Shown: one piece after another, positions 5,391-64,000 of the stretch
Position numbering within the stretch: the stretch's first letter is position 1
How the letters are laid out: each line of letters begins with the position of its first letter
Assembly (NCBI RefSeq): GCF_000760035.1
Contig: NZ_JNAO01000008.1
Coordinates: 1-64,000 of the forward strand
Reading direction: 5' to 3'
From: Prochlorococcus marinus str. MIT 9314
GTDB taxonomy: Bacteria > Cyanobacteriota > Cyanobacteriia > PCC-6307 > Cyanobiaceae
Length of the DNA: 64,000 bases
Notes under the pieces: generated by a model
What the model was told of the DNA's origin: nothing
Seen by the model: only the letters and a program-made list of their open reading frames with translations
The model's database searches: none
Translations under genes and position numbers: made by a program

Positions 5391-6236
5391 TTGTTAATAG
5401 CAACTTGGAATGTTAACTCTATAAGATCCAGACTTTCACAAATAATAGATTGGATTAATAAAGCCAATCCAGATATTCTATGTTTGCAGGAAACAAAAGT
5501 AATGGATGATAGTTTCCCTATTGCACCTTTTGAAAAATTAGGATACTCAGTAGAGGTCTACGGGCAAAAATCATACAATGGTGTAGCTATTATTTCTAAA
5601 ATAAAGCCGGAAAATGTCAAAAAAGGATTTTACGGTTGTAATGACTTTGATCAAAATATCGAAATTTTCCGAGATCAAAAAAGATTAATTTCTGCTGATA
5701 TTAATGGTATTAAAATCATAAATGTTTACGTGCCAAATGGATCTTCTCTAGAGTCTAGTAAGTTCGAATACAAAATTAATTGGTTAAATTGTTTAGCTTC
5801 ATTTTTAGATGAGCGAGAAAAAAAAGGAGAAATAATTTGTCTTATGGGTGATTTTAATGTTGCTCCGTTTAACCTTGATATTCATGATCCAAAGAAATAT
5901 GAAGGAGGAATAATGGCTTCTGAGATAGAGAGAAATGCATTAAATAATGTTCTGAAAAAAAGATTAATAGATACTTTCAGGATTTTTGAAAAAAATACTG
6001 GTCATTGGAGTTGGTGGGATTACCGTAATAACGCATTTGTATTAAATAAAGGTTGGAGAATAGACCATATTTATATCAGCAAAGAACTGTCATCAAAACT
6101 TAAAAGTTGTGTCATAGACAGCTCACCAAGGGGTAATTCGCGTCCAAGTGATCATGCCCCAGTAATGATAGATCTTAACTTAAACGGCATAAATGTAGAT
6201 TTTTTCGAGGATGAGGATGATCTCTTCGAAATATAA
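5391..6236 (+). CDS. xthA: Exodeoxyribonuclease III (AP endonuclease, ExoIII family)
   Basis: A 281-residue endonuclease/exonuclease/phosphatase-fold enzyme for base-excision repair of abasic sites. Active-site motifs appear in the expected order: ATWNVNSIRSR (residues 4-14), CLQETKV with the metal-binding Glu at 34, VYVPNG, GDFNVAP, WSWWDYR, GWRIDHI and the C-terminal SDHAPV with the catalytic His. The start is a TTG directly before the conserved strand, so no longer N-terminus is expected. A short acidic tail (DFFEDEDDLFEI) follows the catalytic core. Confidence 0.95.
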   Translation: MLIATWNVNSIRSRLSQIIDWINKANPDILCLQETKVMDDSFPIAPFEKLGYSVEVYGQKSYNGVAIISKIKPENVKKGFYGCNDFDQNIEIFRDQKRLISADINGIKIINVYVPNGSSLESSKFEYKINWLNCLASFLDEREKKGEIICLMGDFNVAPFNLDIHDPKKYEGGIMASEIERNALNNVLKKRLIDTFRIFEKNTGHWSWWDYRNNAFVLNKGWRIDHIYISKELSSKLKSCVIDSSPRGNSRPSDHAPVMIDLNLNGINVDFFEDEDDLFEI

Positions 6237-8642: not shown

Positions 8643-8762
8643 TAAATTTTTTCTTTTAATTAATCATATTTAAATAGACTAATTAGTGCATTGATAAGAC
8701 ATTTAATTAAAATATTTTTTTAATAATTGAAGATTTAATATAAATAATATTTACTAGATATT

Positions 8763-8960
8763 CTATTTAAATTCTTGCAAAAGTTCTAAATAAAGGTCTT
8801 CATCTATTTCTCTTATGTCATATTCAGAGGGTAGAACACCATGCTTATGCTCATGTACTGCCATCCAACAATATTTCTCTATTTCTTCTTTTGAAAAGCG
8901 AGGATATTCTTGTACTTTCTTAATCAATGATTTAATGAGAGATTCTGAATAATCTGTCAT
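8763..8960 (-). CDS. Small acidic hypothetical protein, 65 residues
   Basis: A soluble 65-residue protein starting MTDYSESLIKSLIKKVQEYP, rich in Glu/Asp/Lys and ending YLELLQEFK. It contains VHEHKHGVLPSEYDI, a compact conserved-looking core. No known domain recognised. It lies 27 bp downstream of yajQ on the same strand and may be co-transcribed with it. Confidence 0.6.
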   Translation of the reverse strand: MTDYSESLIKSLIKKVQEYPRFSKEEIEKYCWMAVHEHKHGVLPSEYDIREIDEDLYLELLQEFK

Positions 8961-8987
8961 GCTTTAAAAATGCTCTTACTGAAGATT

Positions 8988-9485
8988 TTATCTAAAGTTA
9001 TTAGCTTTTAGAGGAATGTTTAAAGACTCTTCCAACTCACTAACAAGCTTAATTGCTAATTGAAGATCATTTTTGCTCTTACTTGCAACTCTGAGTGTTT
9101 CTCCATTGATGCTGACATTAATTTTCTTTATTTGATCTCTAATATTTTTACTGATTTTTTTTGCGATTTCTTGTTTGATTCCTTGTTTTAATAAAATTGT
9201 CTGTTTTACTCTATTACCACTAACCATTTCAATTTCACCGTAATCAAATATTTTTAAAGATAAGTTTCTTTTTATTGCCTTTTGTCTAATTATGTCATTA
9301 ACAGCATTTAAGGTTAATTCGCTGTTGGTGATTATAAAAATATTTTCTTTATCTAAATCAACTGAAGTGTCTGTTCCTTTAAGATCGTAACGCTGAGAAA
9401 TTTCCCTTTTTACTTGATCCAAAGCATTGACCAATTCCTGTCTATCAAAATCAGAAACTACATCAAATGAAAAACTTTCTGCCAT
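8988..9485 (-). CDS. yajQ: YajQ/UPF0234 nucleotide-binding protein
   Basis: A 165-residue member of the YajQ family. N-terminal AESFSFDVVSDFDRQELVNA and RYDLKGTDTSVDLD are family hallmarks, as are KQTILLKQGI and the C-terminal LRVASKSKNDLQ. Some members bind cyclic di-GMP or other nucleotides and act as regulators; whether this one does cannot be judged from sequence. The length matches the family (about 163). Confidence 0.92.
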   Translation of the reverse strand: MAESFSFDVVSDFDRQELVNALDQVKREISQRYDLKGTDTSVDLDKENIFIITNSELTLNAVNDIIRQKAIKRNLSLKIFDYGEIEMVSGNRVKQTILLKQGIKQEIAKKISKNIRDQIKKINVSINGETLRVASKSKNDLQLAIKLVSELEESLNIPLKANNFR

Positions 9486-54328: not shown

Positions 54329-55099
54329 TTATTCATATGGTCTAATTGGAAGTTTTTTTTCGAGGAGGAAAGTCTTTATTTCTCTTAAAGAAAGTTTCTG
54401 ATCATGCAGTAATGATGCTAAAAGTGCTGCAGATGCCCTGCCTTCATTGAAAACATCATAGATATCTTCTAAACTACCTGCTCCTCCAGAAGCAATCACT
54501 GGGATGTTAACAATATTGGTAACAGATTCAGTCAGATGTAAATCATATCCATTCTGCGTGCCATCACCATCCATTGAAGTAAGCAAAATTTCCCCTGCAC
54601 CTAACTCCTCAACTTTCTTTGCCCAACTTAATACATCTATTCCAGTATTTTCCCTCCCTCCTTTTACATACACCTCCCATTCATCAGTTTTATTAACTTT
54701 TCTTTTAGCATCAATTGCTATCACGATACATTGATTACCAAATTCTCTAGAACTTTTAGAAATTAAATCTGGATTTCTAACAGCAGAAGAATTCAAACTC
54801 ACTTTGTCCGCTCCAGCTCTTAAAAGATCATTAATTGAAGAAACAGAATCTATTCCTCCACCTACTGTAAACGGGATTTTTACTGATTTTGCGGTCCTAG
54901 AAACAAGGTCAACTAATGTATTTCTATTTTCTACACTAGCTCTAATATCTAAAAATACTAATTCATCTGCGCCCTCATCAGAATACCTACAAGCCAATTC
55001 AACAGGATCTCCTGAGTCTCTCAAGTTAACAAAATTTACACCTTTAACCACTCTGCCATGGGCGACATCTAAACAAGGAATTAAACGAAGAGCTACCAT
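54329..55099 (-). CDS. hisF: Imidazole glycerol phosphate synthase cyclase subunit
   Basis: A 256-residue TIM barrel of histidine synthesis. [20 protein letters not shown] (with the catalytic Asp, D11), [36 protein letters not shown] (second catalytic Asp) and [13 protein letters not shown] are all present. It works with the glutaminase HisH, which is not in the window. Length normal. Confidence 0.97.
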
Positions 55100-55158
55100 T
55101 TTAGTAAAAATTGTCCAAATGCTGTTAATCTTGCATAATAGCTTCCATTTTACCTCTT

Positions 55159-55383
55159 ATGGCTGAAACAAAATTATTACCTAAAATCGGTAGTAAAATC
55201 AAAATTAACATTAACAAAGTAAAAGATAGACTACCAGCTAAATTAATCGATCAAATATCCTCGAATCCTAAAGCCGTAATAACAGGCTATAAAATGACAG
55301 ACGGAAGAAGTATTGGAATCACCGCAAAATTTCAGAATGGTGAGCAAAATTGGTTTTTCCCAGAAGAAATTGAGAAAGGTTAA
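55159..55383 (+). CDS. DUF2862 family small protein
   Basis: A 74-residue protein with KIGSKIKININKVKDRLPAK and TGYKMTDGRSIGITAKFQNG, matching cyanobacterial DUF2862. It ends GEQNWFFPEEIEKG. The function is unknown. It lies 7 bp upstream of chlG and is probably co-transcribed with it. Confidence 0.8.
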   Translation: MAETKLLPKIGSKIKININKVKDRLPAKLIDQISSNPKAVITGYKMTDGRSIGITAKFQNGEQNWFFPEEIEKG

Positions 55384-55390
55384 GAGTAAA

Positions 55391-56338
55391 GTGAATGATC
55401 CAAAACAACTATTAGGAATTAAGGGCGCCTCAGAGACATCAAGTATATGGAAACTCCGTATACAGTTAATGAAACCCATAACGTGGATCCCTTTGATATG
55501 GGGAGTTATATGTGGAGCAGCTGCAAGTGGGAATTTTGAATGGACATTTAGTAATGTTCTAGCTTCGTTAGCATGTATGCTTATGAGTGGACCACTTCTG
55601 GCTGGTTATACCCAAACCATAAATGATTTTTTTGATAAAGAAATTGATGCAATTAATGAACCAAATAGACCAATTCCTTCTGGGAAAATTTCAATTAAAG
55701 ATGTAAAAATACAAATCTGGGTATTACTTATTGCGGGTTTAGTAGTTGCTTTTCTATTAGATTTATATGCTAAGCACAGCTTCCCCTCAGTCTTACTTTT
55801 GGCATCAGGAGGTTCCTTTGTTAGTTATATATATTCGGCTCCGCCACTCAAATTAAAACAGAATGGTTGGCTTGGGAATTATGCATTAGGAGCATCTTAT
55901 ATAGCTTTACCTTGGTGGGCAGGACAAGCCTTGTTTGGGAAATTAACTATCGTAACTGCGATACTAACACTTGCTTATAGTCTCTCAGGACTTGGAATTG
56001 CTGTTATTAATGATTTCAAAAGTGTTGAAGGAGACTCGAAGCTAGGCTTAAATTCTCTACCAGTAGTATTTGGAATTAAAAATGCAAGTAGAATAAGTGC
56101 AGGACTGATTGACATTTTTCAATTAGCAATGGTTGTAGTATTAGTCATTATTGGTCAACATTTAGCCTCTGTAATTTTGGTTTTATTGGTAATTCCACAA
56201 ATTACATTTCAAGATATGTGGTTACTAAGAGATCCCCTAAAGTTTGATGTCAAATATCAAGCCAGTGCCCAGCCGTTCCTTATAACTGGAATGTTAGTTA
56301 CAGCTTTAGCGATAGGACATAGTTTTTTAGTTGCTTAA
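55391..56338 (+). CDS. chlG: Chlorophyll synthase
   Basis: A UbiA-superfamily prenyltransferase that esterifies chlorophyllide. YTQTINDFFDKEIDAINEPN holds the first Asp motif with RPIPSG after it, and NDFKSVEGDSKLGLNSLPV the second. LMKPITWIPLIWGVICGAAA is typical of ChlG. The frame is open 78 bp upstream, overlapping DUF2862, but the GTG at 55391 gives the usual length of about 315 residues. The PBP gene starts at its stop. Confidence 0.95.
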   Translation: MNDPKQLLGIKGASETSSIWKLRIQLMKPITWIPLIWGVICGAAASGNFEWTFSNVLASLACMLMSGPLLAGYTQTINDFFDKEIDAINEPNRPIPSGKISIKDVKIQIWVLLIAGLVVAFLLDLYAKHSFPSVLLLASGGSFVSYIYSAPPLKLKQNGWLGNYALGASYIALPWWAGQALFGKLTIVTAILTLAYSLSGLGIAVINDFKSVEGDSKLGLNSLPVVFGIKNASRISAGLIDIFQLAMVVVLVIIGQHLASVILVLLVIPQITFQDMWLLRDPLKFDVKYQASAQPFLITGMLVTALAIGHSFLVA

Positions 56339-56339
56339 G

Positions 56340-58109
56340 GTGCAAAAGATTAAATTCAAATCTTTTGTTTTAATAATTCCAATATTAATTTTTTCTGGAA
56401 TATCTTTTTATCTTTTTAGCTTATTATTTAACACGTTAAAGTTTGACTTATCTAAAAATAAAAAGTTTCGGGAAACCAAATATTCTTATGTAATATCATC
56501 TTCTGATAATAAGATACTAAGCAAATTAAGCCGCAAATTTGAAATAGATGATACTTATCATAAAATTCCATTTTTTCTTAAAAATTCTTTTATATCTTCT
56601 GAGGATAAAAAATTTTATAAACATAATGGAATAGATTTAAAAAGTATTTCACGAGCCCTTATTCAAAATATTAGAAGTGGTTATGTTAAAGAGGGAGGAA
56701 GTACGATTACACAACAAGTTGCTAGATTACTTTTTCTAAATAATGATTTAAGTTTTCAAAGAAAAATCAAAGAAATATTTATATCACTCATACTTGAATT
56801 TAGATATAACAAAAATCAAATTTTAAAATTATATTTAAATAATATTTATCTAGGATCAGGAGCATACGGGGTAAACGAGGCTGCCCAAGTTTATTTTGGG
56901 AAATTTATAGAAGAATTGACATTATCAGAGATCGCATTAATTGCAGGATTAGCTCCAGCTCCATCAATTTATTCACCTTATCAAAATTTAGATCTAGCTG
57001 TTAAAAATAGAAATAAAGTTCTTGAATCAATGTATGTTGATGGATATATTTCTCTTGCAAATAAGAATAAGGCTATTAAAGAAAAAATAAAATTAAATTA
57101 TCAAACAGGGGATAATTTTTTAGATGATAAATTACTAATAAACTTTATTCTTCAGGAAACAGATAAAAAAATTGGAAGTACAAATGATTATAAGTTTTTA
57201 GAAATTAAATCTTCTATCAATAAAGATTGGCAAGAAAAAGGTCAAAAAATATCAAGATATGCTGGGCCCAGAGAACTTGAATTTGCTCTGTTATCTATCG
57301 AATCAAACACAGGACTAATCAGGACAATGATAACCAGCAAAAATCCATCAATTAATGAATACAATAGAGTGATTTCATCTGTAAGACCTTTAGGTTCTAC
57401 TTTTAAAATAATCACTTATGCTGCTGCATTAATAGAAGGAATACAATTAAGCGATAAATTTGAAGACTTACCAATATGCTGGGAAAGTTATTGCCCAAAG
57501 AATTTTTCAGAAGACTATAGAGGTTCAATATCTTTGATTGAATCATTTAAAAGTTCATCAAATATCGTTCCAATATCATTAACAAAAAAAATCGGCTTAA
57601 AAAATATTATTAATTTAGCAAATTCATTTGGACTAGGTTATAAGCAAGAGTTTGAGGAATACCCTTCATTAGCTATTGGCTCTTACGGAGATAATCTTTT
57701 AAACATCACAAATGCATATTCTGCAATAAACAATAATGGGAATATTCAAAGCCCTGAAATCATAGAAAAAATAGAATCATTTAAAAAACAACCTATTTGG
57801 AGAAATAAATCTATTTCCAAGAAAATATTAGATTTAAAAATAAACAAGAAAATAAATAAACTTCTTGAAAAATCTGTAAAAGAAGGGACTTCAAAAGCAG
57901 CCTTTATAGAAGGAAAGCAAATTTATGGGAAAACAGGAACATCTGATGGAAATAAAGATCTCTGGTTTATTGGTTCCATTGATAACCTTACAACAGGGAT
58001 CTGGATAGGTTACGACGATAACAAGGAATCTGAATTATCTAGTGGGAATGCAGCTTATTTATGGAAAAAGTTCATATCTAAAATTTATAAAATTCCAATT
58101 AAAAAATAA
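56340..58109 (+). CDS. Class A penicillin-binding protein (glycosyltransferase plus transpeptidase)
   Basis: A 589-residue bifunctional murein synthase with one N-terminal membrane anchor. Glycosyltransferase motifs: SSEDKKFYKHNGID with the catalytic Glu, and GGSTITQQVARLLFLN. Transpeptidase motifs: STFK (PLGSTFKIITYAAA), SSN (SFKSSSNIVPIS) and KTGT (IYGKTGTSDGNKD). Shorter than E. coli PBP1a, with no large C-terminal addition. The GTG at 56340 is preferred; an in-frame TTG at 56331 would overlap chlG by 8 bp. Confidence 0.93.
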   Translation: MQKIKFKSFVLIIPILIFSGISFYLFSLLFNTLKFDLSKNKKFRETKYSYVISSSDNKILSKLSRKFEIDDTYHKIPFFLKNSFISSEDKKFYKHNGIDLKSISRALIQNIRSGYVKEGGSTITQQVARLLFLNNDLSFQRKIKEIFISLILEFRYNKNQILKLYLNNIYLGSGAYGVNEAAQVYFGKFIEELTLSEIALIAGLAPAPSIYSPYQNLDLAVKNRNKVLESMYVDGYISLANKNKAIKEKIKLNYQTGDNFLDDKLLINFILQETDKKIGSTNDYKFLEIKSSINKDWQEKGQKISRYAGPRELEFALLSIESNTGLIRTMITSKNPSINEYNRVISSVRPLGSTFKIITYAAALIEGIQLSDKFEDLPICWESYCPKNFSEDYRGSISLIESFKSSSNIVPISLTKKIGLKNIINLANSFGLGYKQEFEEYPSLAIGSYGDNLLNITNAYSAINNNGNIQSPEIIEKIESFKKQPIWRNKSISKKILDLKINKKINKLLEKSVKEGTSKAAFIEGKQIYGKTGTSDGNKDLWFIGSIDNLTTGIWIGYDDNKESELSSGNAAYLWKKFISKIYKIPIKK

Positions 58110-58118
58110 ATTATATTT

Positions 58119-59435
58119 TTAAGATTTATAAGAAATTATTGCAGAATAAAATCCATCACCAGGATAATCCAAGCTAGGTAAAATTTGCTTTTGGCTAATC
58201 AATTTTAAAGTTTTGTTTTTTTCAATAAATCGTTCAATTAATAGATTATTTTCATCAGGACAAATAGTACAGGTTGAATAAACTAAAGTACCATCTTTTT
58301 TCAAAAGAGGGAAAATATTCTCCAAAAGTTTTTCCTGTAATAAAGTTAAAGATTTTATTTTTTCTTCACTTAAAGACCATCTAGAATCTGGATTCCTGGA
58401 AAGAGTTCCAATGCCTGAACATGGAGCATCTAATAAAATCTTATCAAAATAAGATATAAACTTAGGATTTAATTCAATCAAACTCGTAGCATCAGCCTTA
58501 AGGGTATTAACAGATTTCAAATTTAACCTTTCTAAATTTGATTGCAGTATTTTCAATCTTTTTGCTGATCTATCTACGGCAATGATTTCTGCACTATCAT
58601 TTGTTAATTCTGCAAGGTGGGTAGACTTACTTCCTGGAGCTGCACAAGCATCTAAAATCTTTTCACCTTCTTTTGGATTTAAGAGAGGTGCTATCCACTG
58701 AGAAGATCTATCTTGAATTGTCCAAAGTCCATCACTATATCCTGGTAAATTTTTTATTGATCTTGGATTAGATTTTAAAGTAATTCCATTATGTAAATCA
58801 TTAATAATTTCAGCATCAATATTATTTTCATGAAGTACTTTCAAAAAGTTATTTAAATTAGTTTTTAATTGGTTAATTCTCAAATCAATTGATGGTTTTT
58901 TATTAAATGCCTTAATGATATTTTCACCCTCGCTATTGCCGACCCATTTATAAAGATCCTTCACAAGCCATAATGGAAATGATTCAAGATATGAAATTCT
59001 TTCTTTTCTATCAGAAGATAATTCCGGAAAGATTTTTTGTTCTAATTTTCTTGATGCATTTCTCAATATCGCATTTACAGTTCCCGCTAAACCATTTAAA
59101 TCTGTTTTTTTAGCTACTTCTACAGTGGTAGAAATAGCAGCAGGAAATGGGATTTTATCCATTTTCAATAGTTGATACAGACCTATATGTAGAAGCCATC
59201 TTAACTTTGGAGGCTGCTTTTTATGAGTAATTTTTGATGTATGATCCATCCAAAGATCAAGAAATTTTCTATACCTTATGCATCCAAAAGATAATTCCGT
59301 AATAAAAGCTATATCAAGAGGATTAAATTGATAATTTTTTAAAACCTTTTCAAGAGCATGATCAGAAAAATCACCAGAACTAACTTTTAATAAAATTTCC
59401 CAAGCTGCCTTTCTTTGTAAATATCCTATGCTCAA
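58119..59435 (-). CDS. rsmB: 16S rRNA m5C967 methyltransferase (RsmB/Sun)
   Basis: A 438-residue protein. An N-terminal NusB-like domain (about 1-150, LRWLLHIGLYQLLKMDKIPF) is followed by the RsmB/Sun SAM domain: LDACAAPGSKSTHLAELTND (motif I) and LDAPCSGIGTLSRNPDSRW with VYSTCTICPDEN, which hold the two catalytic Cys residues. It ends 9 bp from the convergent PBP gene. Confidence 0.95.
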   Translation of the reverse strand: MSIGYLQRKAAWEILLKVSSGDFSDHALEKVLKNYQFNPLDIAFITELSFGCIRYRKFLDLWMDHTSKITHKKQPPKLRWLLHIGLYQLLKMDKIPFPAAISTTVEVAKKTDLNGLAGTVNAILRNASRKLEQKIFPELSSDRKERISYLESFPLWLVKDLYKWVGNSEGENIIKAFNKKPSIDLRINQLKTNLNNFLKVLHENNIDAEIINDLHNGITLKSNPRSIKNLPGYSDGLWTIQDRSSQWIAPLLNPKEGEKILDACAAPGSKSTHLAELTNDSAEIIAVDRSAKRLKILQSNLERLNLKSVNTLKADATSLIELNPKFISYFDKILLDAPCSGIGTLSRNPDSRWSLSEEKIKSLTLLQEKLLENIFPLLKKDGTLVYSTCTICPDENNLLIERFIEKNKTLKLISQKQILPSLDYPGDGFYSAIISYKS

Positions 59436-59486
59436 AATATAATTATTTTTTTTAAGATAACTTTAATATACAAAAAATTCAAAAAT

Positions 59487-59630
59487 TTAAACTACTTTTT
59501 TAATTGCAGAATTAAACCAAATAAATCCTAAGGTAGAAATAAGTGAAAGATTAAATCCTAAAAAAAGAAAGATATTTAAAGAATGGATTCTTTCCCGAAA
59601 AAAAATTTTTTTCTCTTTTTGATACTTCAT
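59487..59630 (-). CDS. Micro-protein with one membrane helix, 47 residues
   Basis: Found by reading the gap upstream of rsmB. It begins MKYQKEKKIFFRERIHSLN, continues with a hydrophobic helix (IFLFLGFNLSLISTLGFIWF, about 20-39) and ends NSAIKKVV. It has ATG and TAA and a positive-inside N-terminus. It lies 51 bp upstream of rsmB on the same strand. Its reality rests on layout alone; no family recognised. Confidence 0.5.
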   Translation of the reverse strand: MKYQKEKKIFFRERIHSLNIFLFLGFNLSLISTLGFIWFNSAIKKVV

Positions 59631-59649
59631 TATTAAAATAAAAACTTAT

Positions 59650-59829
59650 TCAGGATTTCAAACGGCAACCAATATTGATAGATCCTGCATCAAGCATTCT
59701 GCCTAATTTAATTGCTATGGATTCCTCCAACCTATTGAAATTAGATTGATGGCTAGTTATCCAATCTAATTCAGAAAAAGTAATAATTCCAGTCGAATTA
59801 CTTTTTTAAAAAAGCGTTCCAATTTCCAT
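59650..59829 (-). pseudogene. Small conserved-looking gene with an in-frame stop near its start (possibly disrupted)
   Basis: The leftward frame gives MEIGTLF, a TAA stop at 59808-59806, then KSNSTGIITFSELDWITSHQ and, after NFNRLEESIA, IKLGRMLDAGSINIGCRLKS before a TGA at 59652-59650. The part after the stop reads strongly like real protein (51 codons, balanced composition), yet has no ATG, GTG or TTG near its front. The stop lies in a TTTTTTAAAAAA tract, a likely indel or error site. Alternatives: a live gene using an ATT start, or a decayed one. Confidence 0.42.
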
Positions 59830-59934
59830 TAGATAAATCTAATTTTTCCTAAACTAACATCCGTACTTAATATTTCTTCATAACATAATATTCTTTTAAT
59901 TTTTCAAAGACAACTGTAGGTTATTACTCTTAAT

Positions 59935-61425
59935 TTATTGAATATCTCTTAAAAATTTATCAGCCGTTTTTAAGTGATTATTTAATTTCTCTTCTGACAT
60001 TTTATCGAGATTTCTCGTTAACATTGCCAGACGATATTGCTTTCTAAAAAAGCTTTCATTATCTTTAATAAATTTCCAAAATAATCCGTCCCATATTTCA
60101 CACCATGGGCCACTTTTAAAATTAGACATTTTTTTTACATAATTAGAACTTGATATATATGGCTTTGTTGAAAAGATACCACCATCACTAAACTGACTCA
60201 TTCCGTAAACATTTGGGACCATAACCCAATCATAGGAATCAATAAACATTTCCATAAACCATTTATAAACTTGGTTAGGGTGAATTCTACATAGAAGCAT
60301 AAAGTTGCCAACAATCATTAGCCGCTCAATATGATGACAATAACCAAATTTAATAATATTTTTTATAACAACGTCTACTGGTTCAATTCCTGTATTTCCT
60401 TGATAAAAAGATTTTGGAATTGGCTTATCTTCAAAATTCCAAAAATTACTATTTCGCATCTTTGTTCCGTACTTTTTATAGACAAGGCAAATAAATTCTC
60501 TCCATCCAATAATTTGACGAATAAAACCCTCTAAAGAGTTAATAGGAACATTATTATTTTTTGCAAAAAGTAATGCTTTATTTACTACTACATCTGGGGT
60601 TAATAAGCCGCTATTTAAAAGAGGAGAAAGTAAACTGTGCCATAAAAAGGAATTTTCTTTAGAAATAGCATCCTCATAATCTCCAAATAAGAAAAATCTA
60701 TGTTTAAAAAAATCATTTAACCATTCATCTGCCTCTTCAAAATTAGTTGGATATAAAAAGTTATTACTTTCTCCAATAAACTCAATATCAAAATTGGCTA
60801 ATGACCTTTCTGCATTAACTACAAATTTATTTTTTTGTAATTTAGGTGTATCGGGTATATTTATTTTTTTTGGTAATTTTTTTCTGTTCATTTCATCGAA
60901 ACTCCATTTACCACCTTCAGGAGTATCATCAGGATTAACTAATATCTTTTGGCTCTTTCTTTGATGCTCATAAAATCTCCCCATAAGAGGTTTTTTTGCA
61001 TTTGATGCAAATAAATCTTTTAAATCTTCACTGCTCATAAACATAGGAGAAGGTAAAATATTTAAAGCTAAATTATTACTTTCAACAAAATTATTAATCC
61101 TCTTCATTATTAAAAAATCATGAGGGTCAATGAGATTTATTTTCTGATATTTATTTTGAATAATTTCCGAAAAGTAATCAACTGTAGAAACATTATTCTT
61201 GTTTTCGATATATAAAACTTTAAAGCCAGATATTTCTAAATAATTTTTATAAGCGAGCATAGATGCTCTATGAAAAACTAACTTATTTTTATGATTAATT
61301 AATTTATGAAATTTATCATTTCCAAAAAATAATGAGTCTTCCAAAATCAAAACTTCACAATTTATTTTTAAGATTGGGCTTTCTCTAAAAAGTTGATTCG
61401 GGAAAATAATTGATACTTGTTTCAT
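59935..61425 (-). CDS. FeS-BCP/COG3046-type photolyase-related flavoprotein lacking most cluster cysteines
   Basis: A 496-residue protein of the prokaryotic (6-4) photolyase/cryptochrome group. The N-terminal Rossmann domain ([14 protein letters not shown]) would bind the lumazine antenna; the C-terminal FAD domain includes [12 protein letters not shown] (245-256), [15 protein letters not shown] (297-311), [10 protein letters not shown] (361-370, with the His pair H364/H365) and [18 protein letters not shown]. Relatives bind a 4Fe-4S cluster with four Cys; here the first position is Pro349, the CxxC region reads NFKSGPW and only C442 remains. It overlaps the DUF2256 gene by 4 bp. Confidence 0.88.
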
Positions 61426-61553
61426 CTTTGCGACTTCCTGTTACTGCATCTTTTTGAACAGTAGATAACATCATCCCAACAGTTTTTCCATTTTTTACGC
61501 CATTCAAACGGCCTATTGCAAACAGGACAAGTTTTAGTAGAAAGATTTTTCAA
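61422..61553 (-). CDS. DUF2256 Cys-rich micro-protein, 43 residues
   Basis: Found by reading the gap. It begins [18 protein letters not shown], then [20 protein letters not shown]. This is the DUF2256/COG4338 pattern, with CxxC and CxxxC pairs (C9, C12, C32, C36, plus C25) for a likely zinc ribbon. The start is a TTG 3 bp after the upstream gene's stop, and its TGA overlaps the photolyase ATG (ATGA). In many bacteria DUF2256 neighbours or is fused to this photolyase group, which supports a shared function. Confidence 0.85.
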
Positions 61554-61556
61554 AAT

Positions 61557-61793
61557 TTATAATTTTCTTTTATGAGTAGATTTAAATCTAGTTGAATCTT
61601 TAAGGGCCATATGTTTTGTATTTCTTCCCGAAACTCTCTTTCTCCAGACTTTGAAAGATTTGGGTTTGAGATTTTGACGCATAATTTTTATCGCATCTTC
61701 CTCTTTTAAACCAAATTGATACTCGATAGCTTCAAAGGGTGTTCTATCTTCCCAACACATTTCTATTATTCTGTCTATATCGATAATTTCCAT
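61557..61793 (-). CDS. DUF2805/TIGR03643 family protein
   Basis: A 78-residue protein beginning MEIIDIDRIIEMCWEDRTPF and continuing EAIEYQFGLKEEDAIKIMRQ, then a basic tail (KVWRKRVSGRNTKHMALKD). This matches the DUF2805/TIGR03643 family, which tends to sit near photolyase/cryptochrome genes. The N-terminal half looks like a helix-turn-helix; the C-terminal half is Arg/Lys-rich, so nucleic-acid binding is possible. It lies 2 bp after the DUF393 gene. Confidence 0.85.
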   Translation of the reverse strand: MEIIDIDRIIEMCWEDRTPFEAIEYQFGLKEEDAIKIMRQNLKPKSFKVWRKRVSGRNTKHMALKDSTRFKSTHKRKL

Positions 61794-61795
61794 AT

Positions 61796-62200
61796 TTATT
61801 GTTCACATTGTGAGGTACAAAGTTTTTCAATATCGGATCTACCTGTAATTTGAAGTCTATATTTTGCCCAATATCTGTAAACCAATCTCAATAATGGAGA
61901 TAAGAGCTTAATCTTCAAGGGATAATAAACCCAACCTAAACCAACTAATTCATAAGAATATGCAAGTACATCTAGTCCCCTAATAATTTCACCATTTTCA
62001 ATAATCCCATGAAGGTTTGACATAGCTTCTGAATATGAGATGTCATTAAAAAGACTTCGATCATAATCCTTACTATTAATATCTATAAATGCAATTTGAT
62101 TTAAGGTATCTCTTTTTTTAAGAAAATTTGTTTCTCTCAAACAAAGTGGACAACCACCATCGAATAAAAAAGTTAATTTATTTTTCATATTTTTATTCAA
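61796..62200 (-). CDS. DUF393 (DCC family) thiol-disulfide oxidoreductase-like protein
   Basis: A 134-residue protein with the DCC hallmark DGGCPLC (residues 14-20) following LTFLF, as in DUF393. A thioredoxin-like redox role has been proposed for the family from the CxxC-type motif. The rest includes IAFIDINSKDYDRSLF and IRGLDVLAYSYELVGLGWVY, typical of the family. It is the first gene of the leftward four-gene set ending in the photolyase. Confidence 0.87.
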   Translation of the reverse strand: MNKNMKNKLTFLFDGGCPLCLRETNFLKKRDTLNQIAFIDINSKDYDRSLFNDISYSEAMSNLHGIIENGEIIRGLDVLAYSYELVGLGWVYYPLKIKLLSPLLRLVYRYWAKYRLQITGRSDIEKLCTSQCEQ

Positions 62201-62365
62201 ATATAGAAATTAAATAACTTTTTTGTGGAATAAAAAAATTTTTTTTGAGTACAAGCTTTATAAAGCCTTAATAATTGCCAGTTCTAATTTAGTGAAATTA
62301 TATTATCTTATAAATTAATAAGCCATTGATTAAGGGATACATCAATGGTTTAAAACTATTAATGA

Positions 62366-62569
62366 TCAGTCATCTAGAAGATGAACTCCTTCTCCTACGT
62401 CAGGAGTAAATTTACAATATTTTTCGAAAATAAGTCCAACACCTCTCATTTTTTCTCCTAATTCATCGTTAAATTTATTCCATTCTTCCGATTCACGATC
62501 AGGTAAATCCCACCCTTGTTTTTCTACCATACTTGTTATTACTGTATAGTCCCATTCTATGTATGCCAT
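62366..62569 (-). CDS. Small acidic hypothetical protein, 67 residues
   Basis: A 67-residue soluble protein, MAYIEWDYTVITSMVEKQGW, then DLPDRESEEWNKFNDELGEK and FTPDVGEGVHLLDD at the end. Trp- and acid-rich, with no known domain recognised. It is separated from the DUF393 gene by 165 bp and so may not belong to the photolyase set. Confidence 0.62.
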   Translation of the reverse strand: MAYIEWDYTVITSMVEKQGWDLPDRESEEWNKFNDELGEKMRGVGLIFEKYCKFTPDVGEGVHLLDD

Positions 62570-62665
62570 TGAGTTAACCTAAACTACTAAAATATTATAA
62601 ACCAAGAGATTTAATAGGTAATCAATATTTTTTGAATATAATTTAAAGGTGTGAAAAAATTATAA

Positions 62666-63337
62666 ATGTCAATTTTGCCAAGAAGATTTGAACGAATCAA
62701 AAGTGTTTTAAATTGCAGAATGAAAAACTTGACTGTTTTAGTTGAGGATGTAAATAAACCACATAATTTATCTGCGATATTAAGGACATGTGATGCAGCA
62801 GGAGTTTTCGAAGCAAATTTTATTAGCAAAACAAATGCCGTTAAGACTTTTAATAGTACTGCTCAAGGAAGTCAAAAATGGGTAAAGCTGAATAATCATG
62901 AAAACACTATCACGGCAATATCTGATTTAAAGAATAAGGGTTTTAAATTATATGGAACGACTCTTAATAGTGAATCAGTAGATTATAGAAATTTTGATTA
63001 TTCTCAAAATACATGTTTTGTTTTAGGAGCAGAAAAATGGGGACTAAGTAATGAACTTATATCAATGGTTGATCAATCAATTTTTATACCTATGAGAGGT
63101 ATGGTTCAATCTCTGAATGTTTCAGTTGCTGCTTCCATATTATTATTTGAAGCTGTTCGCCAAAGAAAAAATAAAGGTATATTGCCCGATAATGGAGAAG
63201 GGTTAAATATGGATGAATATCAAAAAACACTTTTTGAATGGTGTTACCCAGAATTAGCTGCGGTGTATAAAAAATCAGCTAAAGAATATCCAAATTTGAA
63301 TGATCAAGGAGAACTTGATCCTATTATAGATAACTAA
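62666..63337 (+). CDS. trmH: tRNA (Gm18) 2'-O-methyltransferase (SpoU/TrmH)
   Basis: A 223-residue SPOUT enzyme. LTVLVEDVNKPHNLSAILRT (about 23-42) holds motif 1 with the catalytic Arg, FVLGAEKWGLSNELI motif 2, and IPMRGMVQSLNVSVAASILL motif 3 forming the SAM knot. The C-terminal extension (WCYPELAAVYKKSAKEYPNL) fits TrmH. It ends 2 bp from the convergent ABC permease. Confidence 0.92.
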   Translation: MSILPRRFERIKSVLNCRMKNLTVLVEDVNKPHNLSAILRTCDAAGVFEANFISKTNAVKTFNSTAQGSQKWVKLNNHENTITAISDLKNKGFKLYGTTLNSESVDYRNFDYSQNTCFVLGAEKWGLSNELISMVDQSIFIPMRGMVQSLNVSVAASILLFEAVRQRKNKGILPDNGEGLNMDEYQKTLFEWCYPELAAVYKKSAKEYPNLNDQGELDPIIDN

Positions 63338-63339
63338 AC

Positions 63340-64000
63340 TTATTCAGAATTTTGACTATCAAAAATTTCTTCAAGGTCCTCTCCTATAAAAGAAAGACCT
63401 AAAACTAAAAAAAACATTGCCAAACCTGGGAACAAAGCCGTCCACCAGATACCTGTCGGTAAAGCGGCAAGAGCCAGATTTAAATCACTTCCCCACTCTG
63501 GGACATCTGCAGGAACGCCAAGGCCTAAAAATCCTAAACTTCCTAATACCAAAACAGCATCTGCAGCATTTAGGGTAAGCAGAATAGGCAATGGTGTTAT
63601 TACATTTGGGAGAATATATTTAAAAATAATTTTTTTAACATCAGCTCCTGCAACTTGAGCTGCCTCCACATAAGTTTCGGATTTAACCAATATTGTCTGA
63701 TTTCTGATTAATCTAAAATATTGAGGAGAGTAAACAATACACAATGCCAAAGCCGCGTTAAGGATACCCTTACCCAATACAAAAGCCACAACAACTGAAA
63801 GCAAAATTACAGGTATTGAAAAAATAGTATCCATTATTAGTGATAAGCATTTATCAAAAAAACCACCAAAATACCCACTTAATAATCCCAATGGCAAACC
63901 CAAACTTAATGAAAAAAGAATAGCTAAGAATACAACTTCTATAGCTAATGATGATCCTTGCAAAGTTCTTAAGCAAACATCTCTTCCTAATCTATCGGTG
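63340..64000 (-). CDS. Peptide/nickel-type ABC permease (DppC-like), 5' end outside window
   Basis: The frame stays open to the window edge. Upstream of the TTG at 63963 it reads TDRLGRDVCLRTLQGSSLAI, matching the conserved TDxLGRDVxxRxLxGxR near the N-terminus of DppC permeases, so the real start lies beyond 64000. The rest has LGLPLGLLSGYFGG, DTIFSIPVILLSVVVA, YVEAAQVAGADVKKIIFKYI (EAA loop) and LGSLGFLGLGVPADVPEWGS, all typical of DppC/OppC. Confidence 0.9.
   Translation of the reverse strand, partial: TDRLGRDVCLRTLQGSSLAIEVVFLAILFSLSLGLPLGLLSGYFGGFFDKCLSLIMDTIFSIPVILLSVVVAFVLGKGILNAALALCIVYSPQYFRLIRNQTILVKSETYVEAAQVAGADVKKIIFKYILPNVITPLPILLTLNAADAVLVLGSLGFLGLGVPADVPEWGSDLNLALAALPTGIWWTALFPGLAMFFLVLGLSFIGEDLEEIFDSQNSE

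What the first reader, a model, noticed from the sequence alone, without database searches (positions are those of the whole stretch)
59935..62200. Compact four-gene photolyase module: DUF393, DUF2805, DUF2256, photolyase-like flavoprotein
Four leftward genes are packed with 2-3 bp gaps and one 4-bp overlap. They are a DGGCPLC redox protein, a basic HTH-like DUF2805, a 43-residue Cys-rich DUF2256 and a COG3046 photolyase. Three are domains of unknown function, and two of these are known from gene-neighbourhood patterns to travel with this photolyase group. Coupling implies a shared light- or redox-linked pathway. Hypothesis: the DUF393 protein (thiol redox) and DUF2256 (Cys ribbon) serve assembly, electron supply or nucleic-acid targeting for the photolyase.
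Basis: partly seen in the sequence, partly recalled or inferred. Interest (0 to 1): 0.72.

Follow-up and report, generated by a model that had tools for sequence, protein, structure and literature searches.

The report
Photolyase operon with conserved unknown partners
A light-driven DNA-repair enzyme in the ocean cyanobacterium Prochlorococcus is encoded in a tight gene cluster with three little-studied small proteins, two of which turn up with this enzyme in very distant bacteria and are probably its helpers.

Summary
The four leftward genes are real and at the stated coordinates: DCC1-like (DUF393), DUF2805/TIGR03643, DUF2256 and a DPRP photolyase. The last is of the Phr2/PromaPL type, which lacks the Fe-S cysteines. 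The order is the same in 79 of 80 related loci.

For DUF2256 and DUF2805 the coupling is more than a local accident. Among 228 Pseudomonadota genomes DUF2256 co-occurs with DPRP in 38 of 43 (8.5 expected), 18 of these within 5 kb; DUF2805 in 13 of 14. In 181 genomes of the window's family, 33 of 33 DUF2805 and 92 of 94 DUF2256 genomes carry DPRP, though only 14 of the 33 have the trio clustered. The genes recur together in different orders, for example on Acinetobacter plasmids.

Against strict dependence: in 166 cyanobacteria, 11 of 29 DUF2805 and 31 of 74 DUF2256 genomes lack DPRP, and published work shows a Synechococcus Phr2 working alone in E. coli. So assembly or electron supply is unlikely.

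Best reading: accessory factors of photoreactivation, probably nucleic-acid-binding adaptors (inferred). The photolyase is known; I found no report of the partnership.

The parts
61796..62200 (-). DCC1-like (DUF393) thiol-disulfide oxidoreductase family, 134 aa, DGGCPLC motif; first gene of the cluster
   Evidence: PF04134 5.2e-24; present in 79/80 loci
61557..61793 (-). DUF2805 / TIGR03643, 78 aa, basic, helical; slowest-evolving gene of the set
   Evidence: PF10985 3.1e-32, TIGR03643 2.4e-36; dN 0.035 against 0.14 for DPRP with L076; four-helix model, mean pLDDT 78
61422..61553 (-). DUF2256, 43 aa, C-x2-C-x19-C-x3-C, zinc-finger-like protein of the TRASH clan; TTG start; overlaps the photolyase start by 4 bp
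   Evidence: PF10013 3e-18; the four Cys invariant in 31 aligned members
59935..61425 (-). DPRP (PhrB-type) photolyase, 496 aa, Phr2/PromaPL type without the Fe-S cluster cysteines
   Evidence: PF04244 3.7e-43 and FAD_binding_7; PDB relatives 8ijy, 9hnk, 4dja, 3zxs; Fe-S motifs absent

Best explanation
The cluster is one transcription unit (inferred from spacing) for light-driven repair of UV lesions. The DPRP protein is the catalyst, a Phr2/PromaPL-type photolyase without an Fe-S cluster. DUF2256, a TRASH-type zinc finger, and DUF2805, a small basic helical protein that may be a helix-turn-helix, are conserved accessory partners of DPRP photolyases. They are not needed for catalysis. The mechanism I commit to is that they are nucleic-acid-binding adaptors that raise repair efficiency in the cell, by recruiting or handing over the photolyase at damaged DNA or by connecting it to excision repair (UvrC/Cho). 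The DCC1-like protein is an optional redox add-on. Shown here: gene identities, conserved order, co-occurrence in two phyla, recurrent adjacency in different gene orders, loss of the Fe-S motifs. Inferred: co-transcription, zinc binding, DNA binding, physical interaction, the adaptor role.
For: Co-occurrence. Pseudomonadota, 228 genomes after dropping contaminated G166: DUF2256 with DPRP 38 of 43 (8.5 expected, Fisher p 1e-30), DUF2805 with DPRP 13 of 14 (2.8 expected, p 2e-9). It holds within the 105 genomes that have an ordinary PF00875 photolyase: DUF2256 in 38 of 45 DPRP+ against 5 of 60 DPRP- (p 4e-16), DUF2805 in 13 of 45 against 1 of 60 (p 5e-5). Family of the window, 181 genomes: DUF2805 33/33 and DUF2256 92/94 with DPRP.
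Adjacency. DUF2256 lies within 5 kb of DPRP in 18 of the 38 Pseudomonadota genomes holding both; of 16 of these 18 laid out, 13 are on one strand, 12 of them abutting or overlapping (start codons uncertain in some). Different orders: 2805>2256>DPRP (Prochlorococcus, and G137, where no DCC was found nearby); 2805>DPRP (cyanobacterial family f7, L087 and L101); 2805>DPRP>2256 (G368, L105); 2805> <2256 <DPRP (3 Acinetobacter plasmids viewed; 11 of 12 Acinetobacter DUF2805 plasmids also hold DPRP). On the DUF2805 tree, 6 DPRP-adjacent members need at least 3 changes on well-supported branches (this could include losses).
The photolyases in these settings are deeply diverged, 27-31% identity to the window's except G137 at 50%, so this is not one recently moved cassette.
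Repair context: a gene of the UvrC cluster directly upstream of DPRP in 15 of 19 family loci with a DPRP ORF, about 3 kb upstream in one more (one member tested by Pfam); DUF2256-DPRP-cho on a Cupriavidus plasmid.
Adaptor role: TRASH-clan membership of DUF2256 (PMC4047054, passage); helical DUF2805 model with weak resemblance to Lrp-type HTH (best Z 4.0); Phr2 reported active in E. coli.
Against: In 166 cyanobacterial genomes 31 of 74 DUF2256 and 11 of 29 DUF2805 genomes have no DPRP (one counted DPRP, G048, is a 48-residue remnant), so both proteins have work without it. The reverse also fails: 7 of 45 Pseudomonadota DPRP genomes lack DUF2256 and 32 lack DUF2805; in the family 12 of 104 and 71 of 104. 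In G048 an intact DUF2805 outlives a decayed photolyase next to it. Only 5 of 43 cyanobacterial genomes with both have DUF2256 within 5 kb of DPRP, all in the window's family, and only 1 of 13 Pseudomonadota genomes has DUF2805 within 5 kb of DPRP; 19 of 43 Pseudomonadota DUF2256 genes are near neither DPRP nor PF00875. All DUF2256, DUF2805 and DPRP genomes in that sample also have a PF00875 photolyase, so the partner could be photoreactivation in general. Fisher tests ignore shared ancestry. The HTH call is weak: no Foldseek match at E<=0.001; the DUF2256 model is poor.
Confidence: 0.45

Rival explanations
1. Shared niche only. DPRP, DUF2256 and DUF2805 are separate light- or UV-stress genes kept together by sunlit habitats, and clustered in shrunken or mobile genomes without touching each other.
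For: All DUF2256, DUF2805 and DPRP genomes in the Pseudomonadota sample also have a PF00875 photolyase, and DUF2805 genomes hold more copies of it (34 in 14 genomes against a mean of 1.2 in the other PF00875 genomes). The strictly low-light Prochlorococcus clades are reported to lack all photolyases (PMC9426592 section 5). DUF2256 and DUF2805 persist without DPRP in many cyanobacteria.
Against: The association survives within PF00875-bearing genomes (p 4e-16 and 5e-5). Abutting same-strand DUF2256-DPRP pairs recur in Pseudomonadota, and different arrangements of the trio recur.
Confidence: 0.27
2. Regulators. DUF2805 (HTH-like) and/or DUF2256 control transcription of photoreactivation genes rather than acting at lesions.
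For: Helical, possibly HTH-like model of DUF2805. Cryptochrome/photolyase operons are reported blue-light induced in Vibrio cholerae (PMC5241685, passages). DUF2805 is also carried by phage-like contigs.
Against: Phr2 transcripts are reported as not UV-induced and constant over the day in marine Synechococcus. Promoter-like matches in the window are no more than in shuffles (16 found, mean 17.8).
Confidence: 0.13
3. One reading: DCC and DUF2256 assemble the photolyase or feed it electrons (Fe-S or flavin reduction).
For: DCC motif DGGCPLC and four Cys of DUF2256. DCC also directly follows DPRP in G216 (gap 9 bp, L123) and DUF2805 in G105 (gap 30 bp, L084).
Against: The photolyases of the window and of G137 have no Fe-S motifs yet keep DUF2256 and DUF2805; the other 11 of 13 aligned DPRPs keep the motifs. 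Phr2 is reported active in E. coli. Only 6 DCC genes lie in 120 non-Prochlorococcus loci.
Confidence: 0.08
4. Chance packing in a streamlined genome; no functional link.
For: Prochlorococcus genomes are compact, and in 19 of 33 family genomes with DUF2805 the genes are 15 kb or more apart or on other contigs (one of the 19, G457, has no DUF2256 match).
Against: Co-presence of 33/33 and 92/94 in the family without adjacency, and the same pairings in other phyla and on plasmids.
Confidence: 0.04

Closest known systems
PromaPL / Phr2, prokaryotic 6-4 photolyase group without Fe-S cluster (PMC9178010 and PMC9426592, passages; section 5 of the latter)
   Same: PhrB-like N-domain and FAD domain; Fe-S cysteines absent; described from Prochlorococcus and marine Synechococcus.
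   Different: DUF2256, DUF2805 and DUF393 are not mentioned in PMC9426592, and DUF2256 and DUF2805 occur in no photolyase paper of the library. Whether this type repairs 6-4 or CPD lesions is left open by PMC9426592.
FeS-BCP photolyases (PDB 4dja PhrB, 3zxs cryptochrome B, 8ijy; organisms recalled, not in the call)
   Same: Homologous from residue 44 to about 480-495.
   Different: Aligned relatives keep the Fe-S cysteine motifs; the window's protein does not.
TIGR03643 (DUF2805) and DUF2256 families
   Same: Matches over the curated cut-offs.
   Different: The library entries name no function; in the passages of the 4 papers that name them I saw no experiment on either.
Light-responsive repair clusters with photolyase, LitR and RudS (PMC11417400, passages)
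   Same: Photolyase grouped with a small accessory gene that handles UV damage.
   Different: Other partner genes; none of the four window genes matched such families.

Membership tests
DPRP photolyase (PF04244, PhrB type) | DPRP N-domain plus photolyase FAD domain | tested here: met
   PF04244 148.4 bits (cut-off 22.1), PF03441 32.5 bits (cut-off 27)
FeS-BCP (iron-sulfur bacterial cryptochrome/photolyase) | Four conserved cysteines for a [4Fe-4S] cluster (in CxxC, ACP and TxMxC motifs) | tested here: not met
   All three motifs absent in the window protein and G137, present in the other 11 of 13 aligned; no CxxC after residue 400 in 79 of 79 DPRP ORFs of the Prochlorococcus-type loci
PromaPL/Phr2 group | PhrB-like photolyase of picocyanobacteria lacking Fe-S cysteines | tested here: met
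   with the definition as in PMC9426592 and PMC9178010; no tree with PromaPL itself was built
PromaPL/Phr2 group | Photorepair activity and lesion type | not testable with these tools
   literature only
DUF2256 (PF10013) | About 40-residue domain with four invariant Cys | tested here: met
   66.1 bits, cut-off 25; alignment of 31
TRASH-clan zinc finger | Zinc binding by the four Cys | not testable with these tools
   clan membership from PMC4047054, passage; AlphaFold model too poor
DUF2805 / TIGR03643 | Curated model score over cut-off | tested here: met
   123.7 bits against 66.55; 111.2 against 22.5
Helix-turn-helix DNA-binding protein | HTH fold | tested here: inconclusive
   four-helix model, mean pLDDT 78.4; best Z 4.0 (rmsd 3.1, 47 aligned) to an Lrp-type regulator, 2znz
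DCC1-like thiol-disulfide oxidoreductase | PF04134 domain with CxxC | tested here: met
   86.1 bits, cut-off 27.8; DGGCPLC
Operon | Co-transcription | not testable with these tools
   inferred from 2/3/-4 bp spacing in 77 of 80 loci, 3/3/-4 in 2 more

The most novel reading that the evidence does not exclude
DUF2256 and DUF2805 are a previously unrecognised pair of photoreactivation factors, conserved between cyanobacteria and proteobacteria and reshuffled around DPRP photolyases several times, which deliver photolyases to damaged nucleic acid or couple them to UvrC. DUF2805 is in addition carried by marine tailed phages to exploit the host's photorepair.
Probability: 0.3. Interest if true: 0.72.

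Novelty: new variant of a known kind. Interest (0 to 1): 0.5.

Why it matters
Photolyases are usually described as single-protein repair enzymes (recalled). Dedicated accessory proteins would change how photorepair inside cells is understood in abundant ocean phototrophs. Two families of unknown function would also gain a testable role: Synechococcus elongatus, a genetic model, has DPRP and DUF2256 but gave no DUF2805 match (control genomes).

Tried and rejected
Fusion of DUF2256 to DPRP (G373, open frame 583 aa over the DPRP region): rejected. The DUF2256 frame differs from the DPRP frame and Pfam sees only DUF2256 in it. Seven other long frames also carry DUF2256 alone, so they look like spurious N-terminal extensions. 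In 79 of 80 loci where my profile found DUF2256, none had more than 16 residues after the domain among the long frames listed, and none over 45 at all. A DUF2256-DUF3253 fusion, recalled from memory, was not seen in the frames tested.

Fe-S assembly as the partners' role: rejected.

Promoter and terminator scan: no more than chance. tRNA scan 55000-64000: none. Profile search of DUF2805 and DUF2256 against PDB sequences: best E 1.5 and 0.054 (uL24 ribosomal protein), not significant. DUF2256 structure: low confidence, not searched further. Foldseek and VIA-align for DUF2805: no family stands out.

Viral scan with the window's photolyase: none. With a diverse DPRP alignment: 6 contigs.

DUF2805-DPRP association inside cyanobacterial family f7: reading by eye I see no clear link there; this counts against strict dependence. 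f7 is called Nostoc-like only because its DUF2805 group with a Nostoc plasmid's.

Rows dropped: G166 from all Pseudomonadota counts (its DUF2805 and DUF2256 lie on a contig that looks like Prochlorococcus contamination). That the 229-genome sample is Pseudomonadota rests on the record title of L002 and on G232:C3 having the length and DUF2805 place of a Vibrio fortis plasmid (108 contig lengths). PF00875 was not searched in the cyanobacteria. Only part of what was found was fetched: 40 of 74 cyanobacterial DUF2256 sites, 40 of 44 Pseudomonadota DUF2256 sites.
Full report
WHAT IS THERE. The window lies in a 1.69-Mb genome. Its closest relatives identify it as Prochlorococcus: 79 of the 80 loci found with the photolyase carry Prochlorococcus or Synechococcaceae titles. 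Their families are DCC1-like (DUF393), DUF2805/TIGR03643, DUF2256 and DPRP photolyase. The set is flanked upstream by a conserved 67-aa ORF (62366-62569, same strand, 165 bp away, no Pfam match) and, on the other strand, by an ORF I take for a SpoU-type methylase (not scanned); downstream comes rsmB. In 77 of 80 loci all seven genes, flanks included, have this order; two more lack one flanking gene; one (L081) shows only a truncated photolyase.

THE GENES ARE REAL AND SELECTED. Between the window and the diverged locus L076, dN/dS is 0.035/0.84 for DUF2805, 0.17/0.97 for DUF2256, 0.14/0.99 for DPRP and 0.15/0.89 for DCC. DUF2805 is the most constrained of the four: 94-95% protein identity to L074, L076 and L078 where the photolyase has 76-79%.

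THE PHOTOLYASE. It matches solved photolyases of the FeS-BCP kind from residue 44 to about 480-495 but lacks the Fe-S cysteine motifs: a 10-residue stretch holding CxxC is missing, and so are the TxMxC and ACP motifs. This is the known PromaPL/Phr2 type (PMC9426592, passages and section 5; PMC9178010, passages). PMC9426592 reports about 1000-fold lower UV-B survival of a phr2 mutant in Synechococcus RS9916, nearly 10-fold better survival of E. coli carrying phr2 when given light, and phr2 transcripts that do not rise after UV and are flat over the day. It does not mention DUF393, DUF2256 or DUF2805.

DO THE PARTNERS TRAVEL WITH IT? Three samples were searched. (a) 166 cyanobacteria: DUF2256 74, DUF2805 29, DPRP 46 genomes. 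DUF2256 with DPRP 43 (20.5 expected), DUF2805 with DPRP 18 (8.0 expected; one of the 18 is the G048 remnant), DUF2805 inside DUF2256 29 of 29. (b) 229 genomes of the phylum of G166, 228 used: DUF2256 43, DUF2805 14, DPRP 45; overlaps with DPRP 38 and 13; 18 of the 38 within 5 kb. With PF00875 photolyases (105 genomes) as a control for photoreactivation in general, DUF2256 still follows DPRP: 38 of 45 DPRP+ genomes against 5 of 60 DPRP-. Six further DUF2256 genes are within 5 kb of a PF00875 gene, and 19 of 43 are near neither. (c) 181 genomes of the window's family: DPRP 104, DUF2256 94, DUF2805 33. DUF2805 is always with DPRP (33 of 33) and DUF2256 in 92 of 94. In 14 of the 33 the trio is clustered within 1 kb (genera g1 and g3); in the other 19 it is not. 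The converse is weaker: 12 of 104 DPRP genomes lack DUF2256 and 71 lack DUF2805; in sample (b) 7 and 32 of 45. Samples a and c share some genomes. Fisher p-values ignore ancestry.

DIFFERENT GENE ORDERS. Prochlorococcus: DCC>2805>2256>DPRP. G137, another genus of the family: 2805>2256>DPRP followed by a peroxiredoxin (AhpC/TSA) gene, no DCC found in the stretch. Family f7 (Nostoc-like) G019 and G024: 2805>DPRP. Acinetobacter plasmids: 2805> <2256 <DPRP with gaps or overlaps of a few bases. The photolyases in these settings are only 27-31% identical to the window's, except G137 at 50%. On a DUF2805 tree the six photolyase-adjacent members are scattered, at least 3 label changes being forced by well-supported branches; this could include losses.

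LIMITS. DUF2256 is held by 70 of 74 genomes of the window's own class in sample a (counted), and 31 of the 74 DUF2256 genomes of the whole sample have no DPRP. Among 40 of the 74 DUF2256 sites fetched there, recurrent genes within 5 kb are an asparaginase-type gene (19 loci), a SpoU methylase-type gene (12) and a beta-lactamase-like gene (11) (one member of each tested). PF00875 was not searched in cyanobacteria. In family f7 DUF2805 often stands without DPRP. In G048 a 50-codon photolyase remnant (76% identity to G024's) lies beside an intact DUF2805, and G103 keeps part of that stretch. So DUF2805 can outlive the photolyase, and a strict one-partner model is wrong.

DCC. An HMM from four DCC proteins finds 6 DCC genes in 120 non-Prochlorococcus loci (1.31 Mb). 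One follows DPRP by 9 bp (G216), one follows DUF2805 by 30 bp (G105), one is near DUF2805 (G316); the other three lie elsewhere in the fetched flanks. Three of the four HMM seeds are the G216, G105 and G316 genes, so those matches are by construction; they were first found by tblastn. The link is suggestive, much weaker than for the other two.

MECHANISM. Because a homologue works in E. coli and the enzyme has no Fe-S site, the partners are unlikely to build it or reduce it. DUF2256 is a TRASH-clan finger (PMC4047054, passage) with Cys, Trp, Arg and Lys positions invariant in 31 members. DUF2805 is a basic four-helix protein with only weak resemblance to HTH regulators. In family relatives with dispersed genes, a gene of a cluster whose one tested member is UvrC lies directly upstream of DPRP on the same strand in 15 of 19 loci with a DPRP ORF, and about 3 kb upstream in one more (20 loci fetched). 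This fits the uvrC neighbour reported for RS9916. On a Cupriavidus plasmid the order is DUF2256-DPRP-cho. I therefore favour adaptors that help the photolyase find lesions or share them with excision repair. This last step is inference.

PHAGES. DUF2805 is encoded on 57 uncultivated viral contigs of up to 380 kb, 55-73% identical apart from two short matches at 85%, often near a flavodoxin-fold gene (26 loci) and thymidylate synthase (15 loci) (one member of each cluster tested). A GroEL gene (L232) and a tail-fibre-like gene (L236) suggest tailed phages. One contig (IMGVR 3300011372_000018; L255 and L300) holds DPRP, DUF2256 and DUF2805 and resembles the Acinetobacter plasmids. None of the other DUF2805 loci has DUF2256 or DPRP in the up to 6 kb held on each side. 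The window's DUF2805 finds no match at E 0.01 among 50,697 named phage records.

NOVELTY. Searches for DUF2256 (2 papers), DUF2805 (2), TIGR03643 (0), COG4338/PF10013/PF10985 (8 papers in the listing, all through 'PF10013'; by title 7 are on Plasmodium, other apicomplexans or an oomycete and 1 on Xanthomonas; none opened), photolyase with DUF393 (1, in separate passages) and photolyase with zinc-finger and neighbourhood terms (0) gave no paper seen to link these families to a photolyase. The library lacks most subscription journals, and neighbourhood databases could not be consulted.

Noticed in passing
L211-L267 (IMG/VR contigs): DUF2805 is carried by 57 uncultivated viral contigs, up to 380 kb, often near a flavodoxin-fold gene and thymidylate synthase; L232 shares GroEL-region similarity with Vibrio, Flavobacterium and other phages.
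   Followed up: partly
L098 (G048) 5862-6011; L097 (G103): Decayed photolyase remnant beside an intact DUF2805 in Nostoc-like genomes.
   Followed up: partly
L319-L334 (family DPRP loci): UvrC-type gene directly upstream of DPRP in 15 of 19 loci, with an unknown ORF of about 100 aa between them in 11.
   Followed up: partly
L002 (JABSSB010000278.1): A Prochlorococcus-like contig inside a MAG titled Rhodobacteraceae: 99% identity to the window's photolyase and the same gene order, probable contamination.
   Followed up: yes
window 62366-62569 (-): 67-aa ORF without Pfam match, 165 bp upstream, apparently under purifying selection and present in 79 of 80 loci.
   Followed up: no
L204 (Pseudoalteromonas sp. 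THAF3 plasmid) 8716-9210: DUF2256 and DUF2805 side by side and divergent with no DPRP annotated in the 18-kb stretch.
   Followed up: no
L081: 5'-truncated DPRP with none of the other cluster genes in 6 kb upstream; possible chimeric single-cell assembly or rearrangement.
   Followed up: no
L143-L182 (40 cyanobacterial DUF2256 loci): Within 5 kb of DUF2256: an asparaginase-type gene in 19 and a SpoU methylase-type gene in 12 of 40 loci.
   Followed up: no
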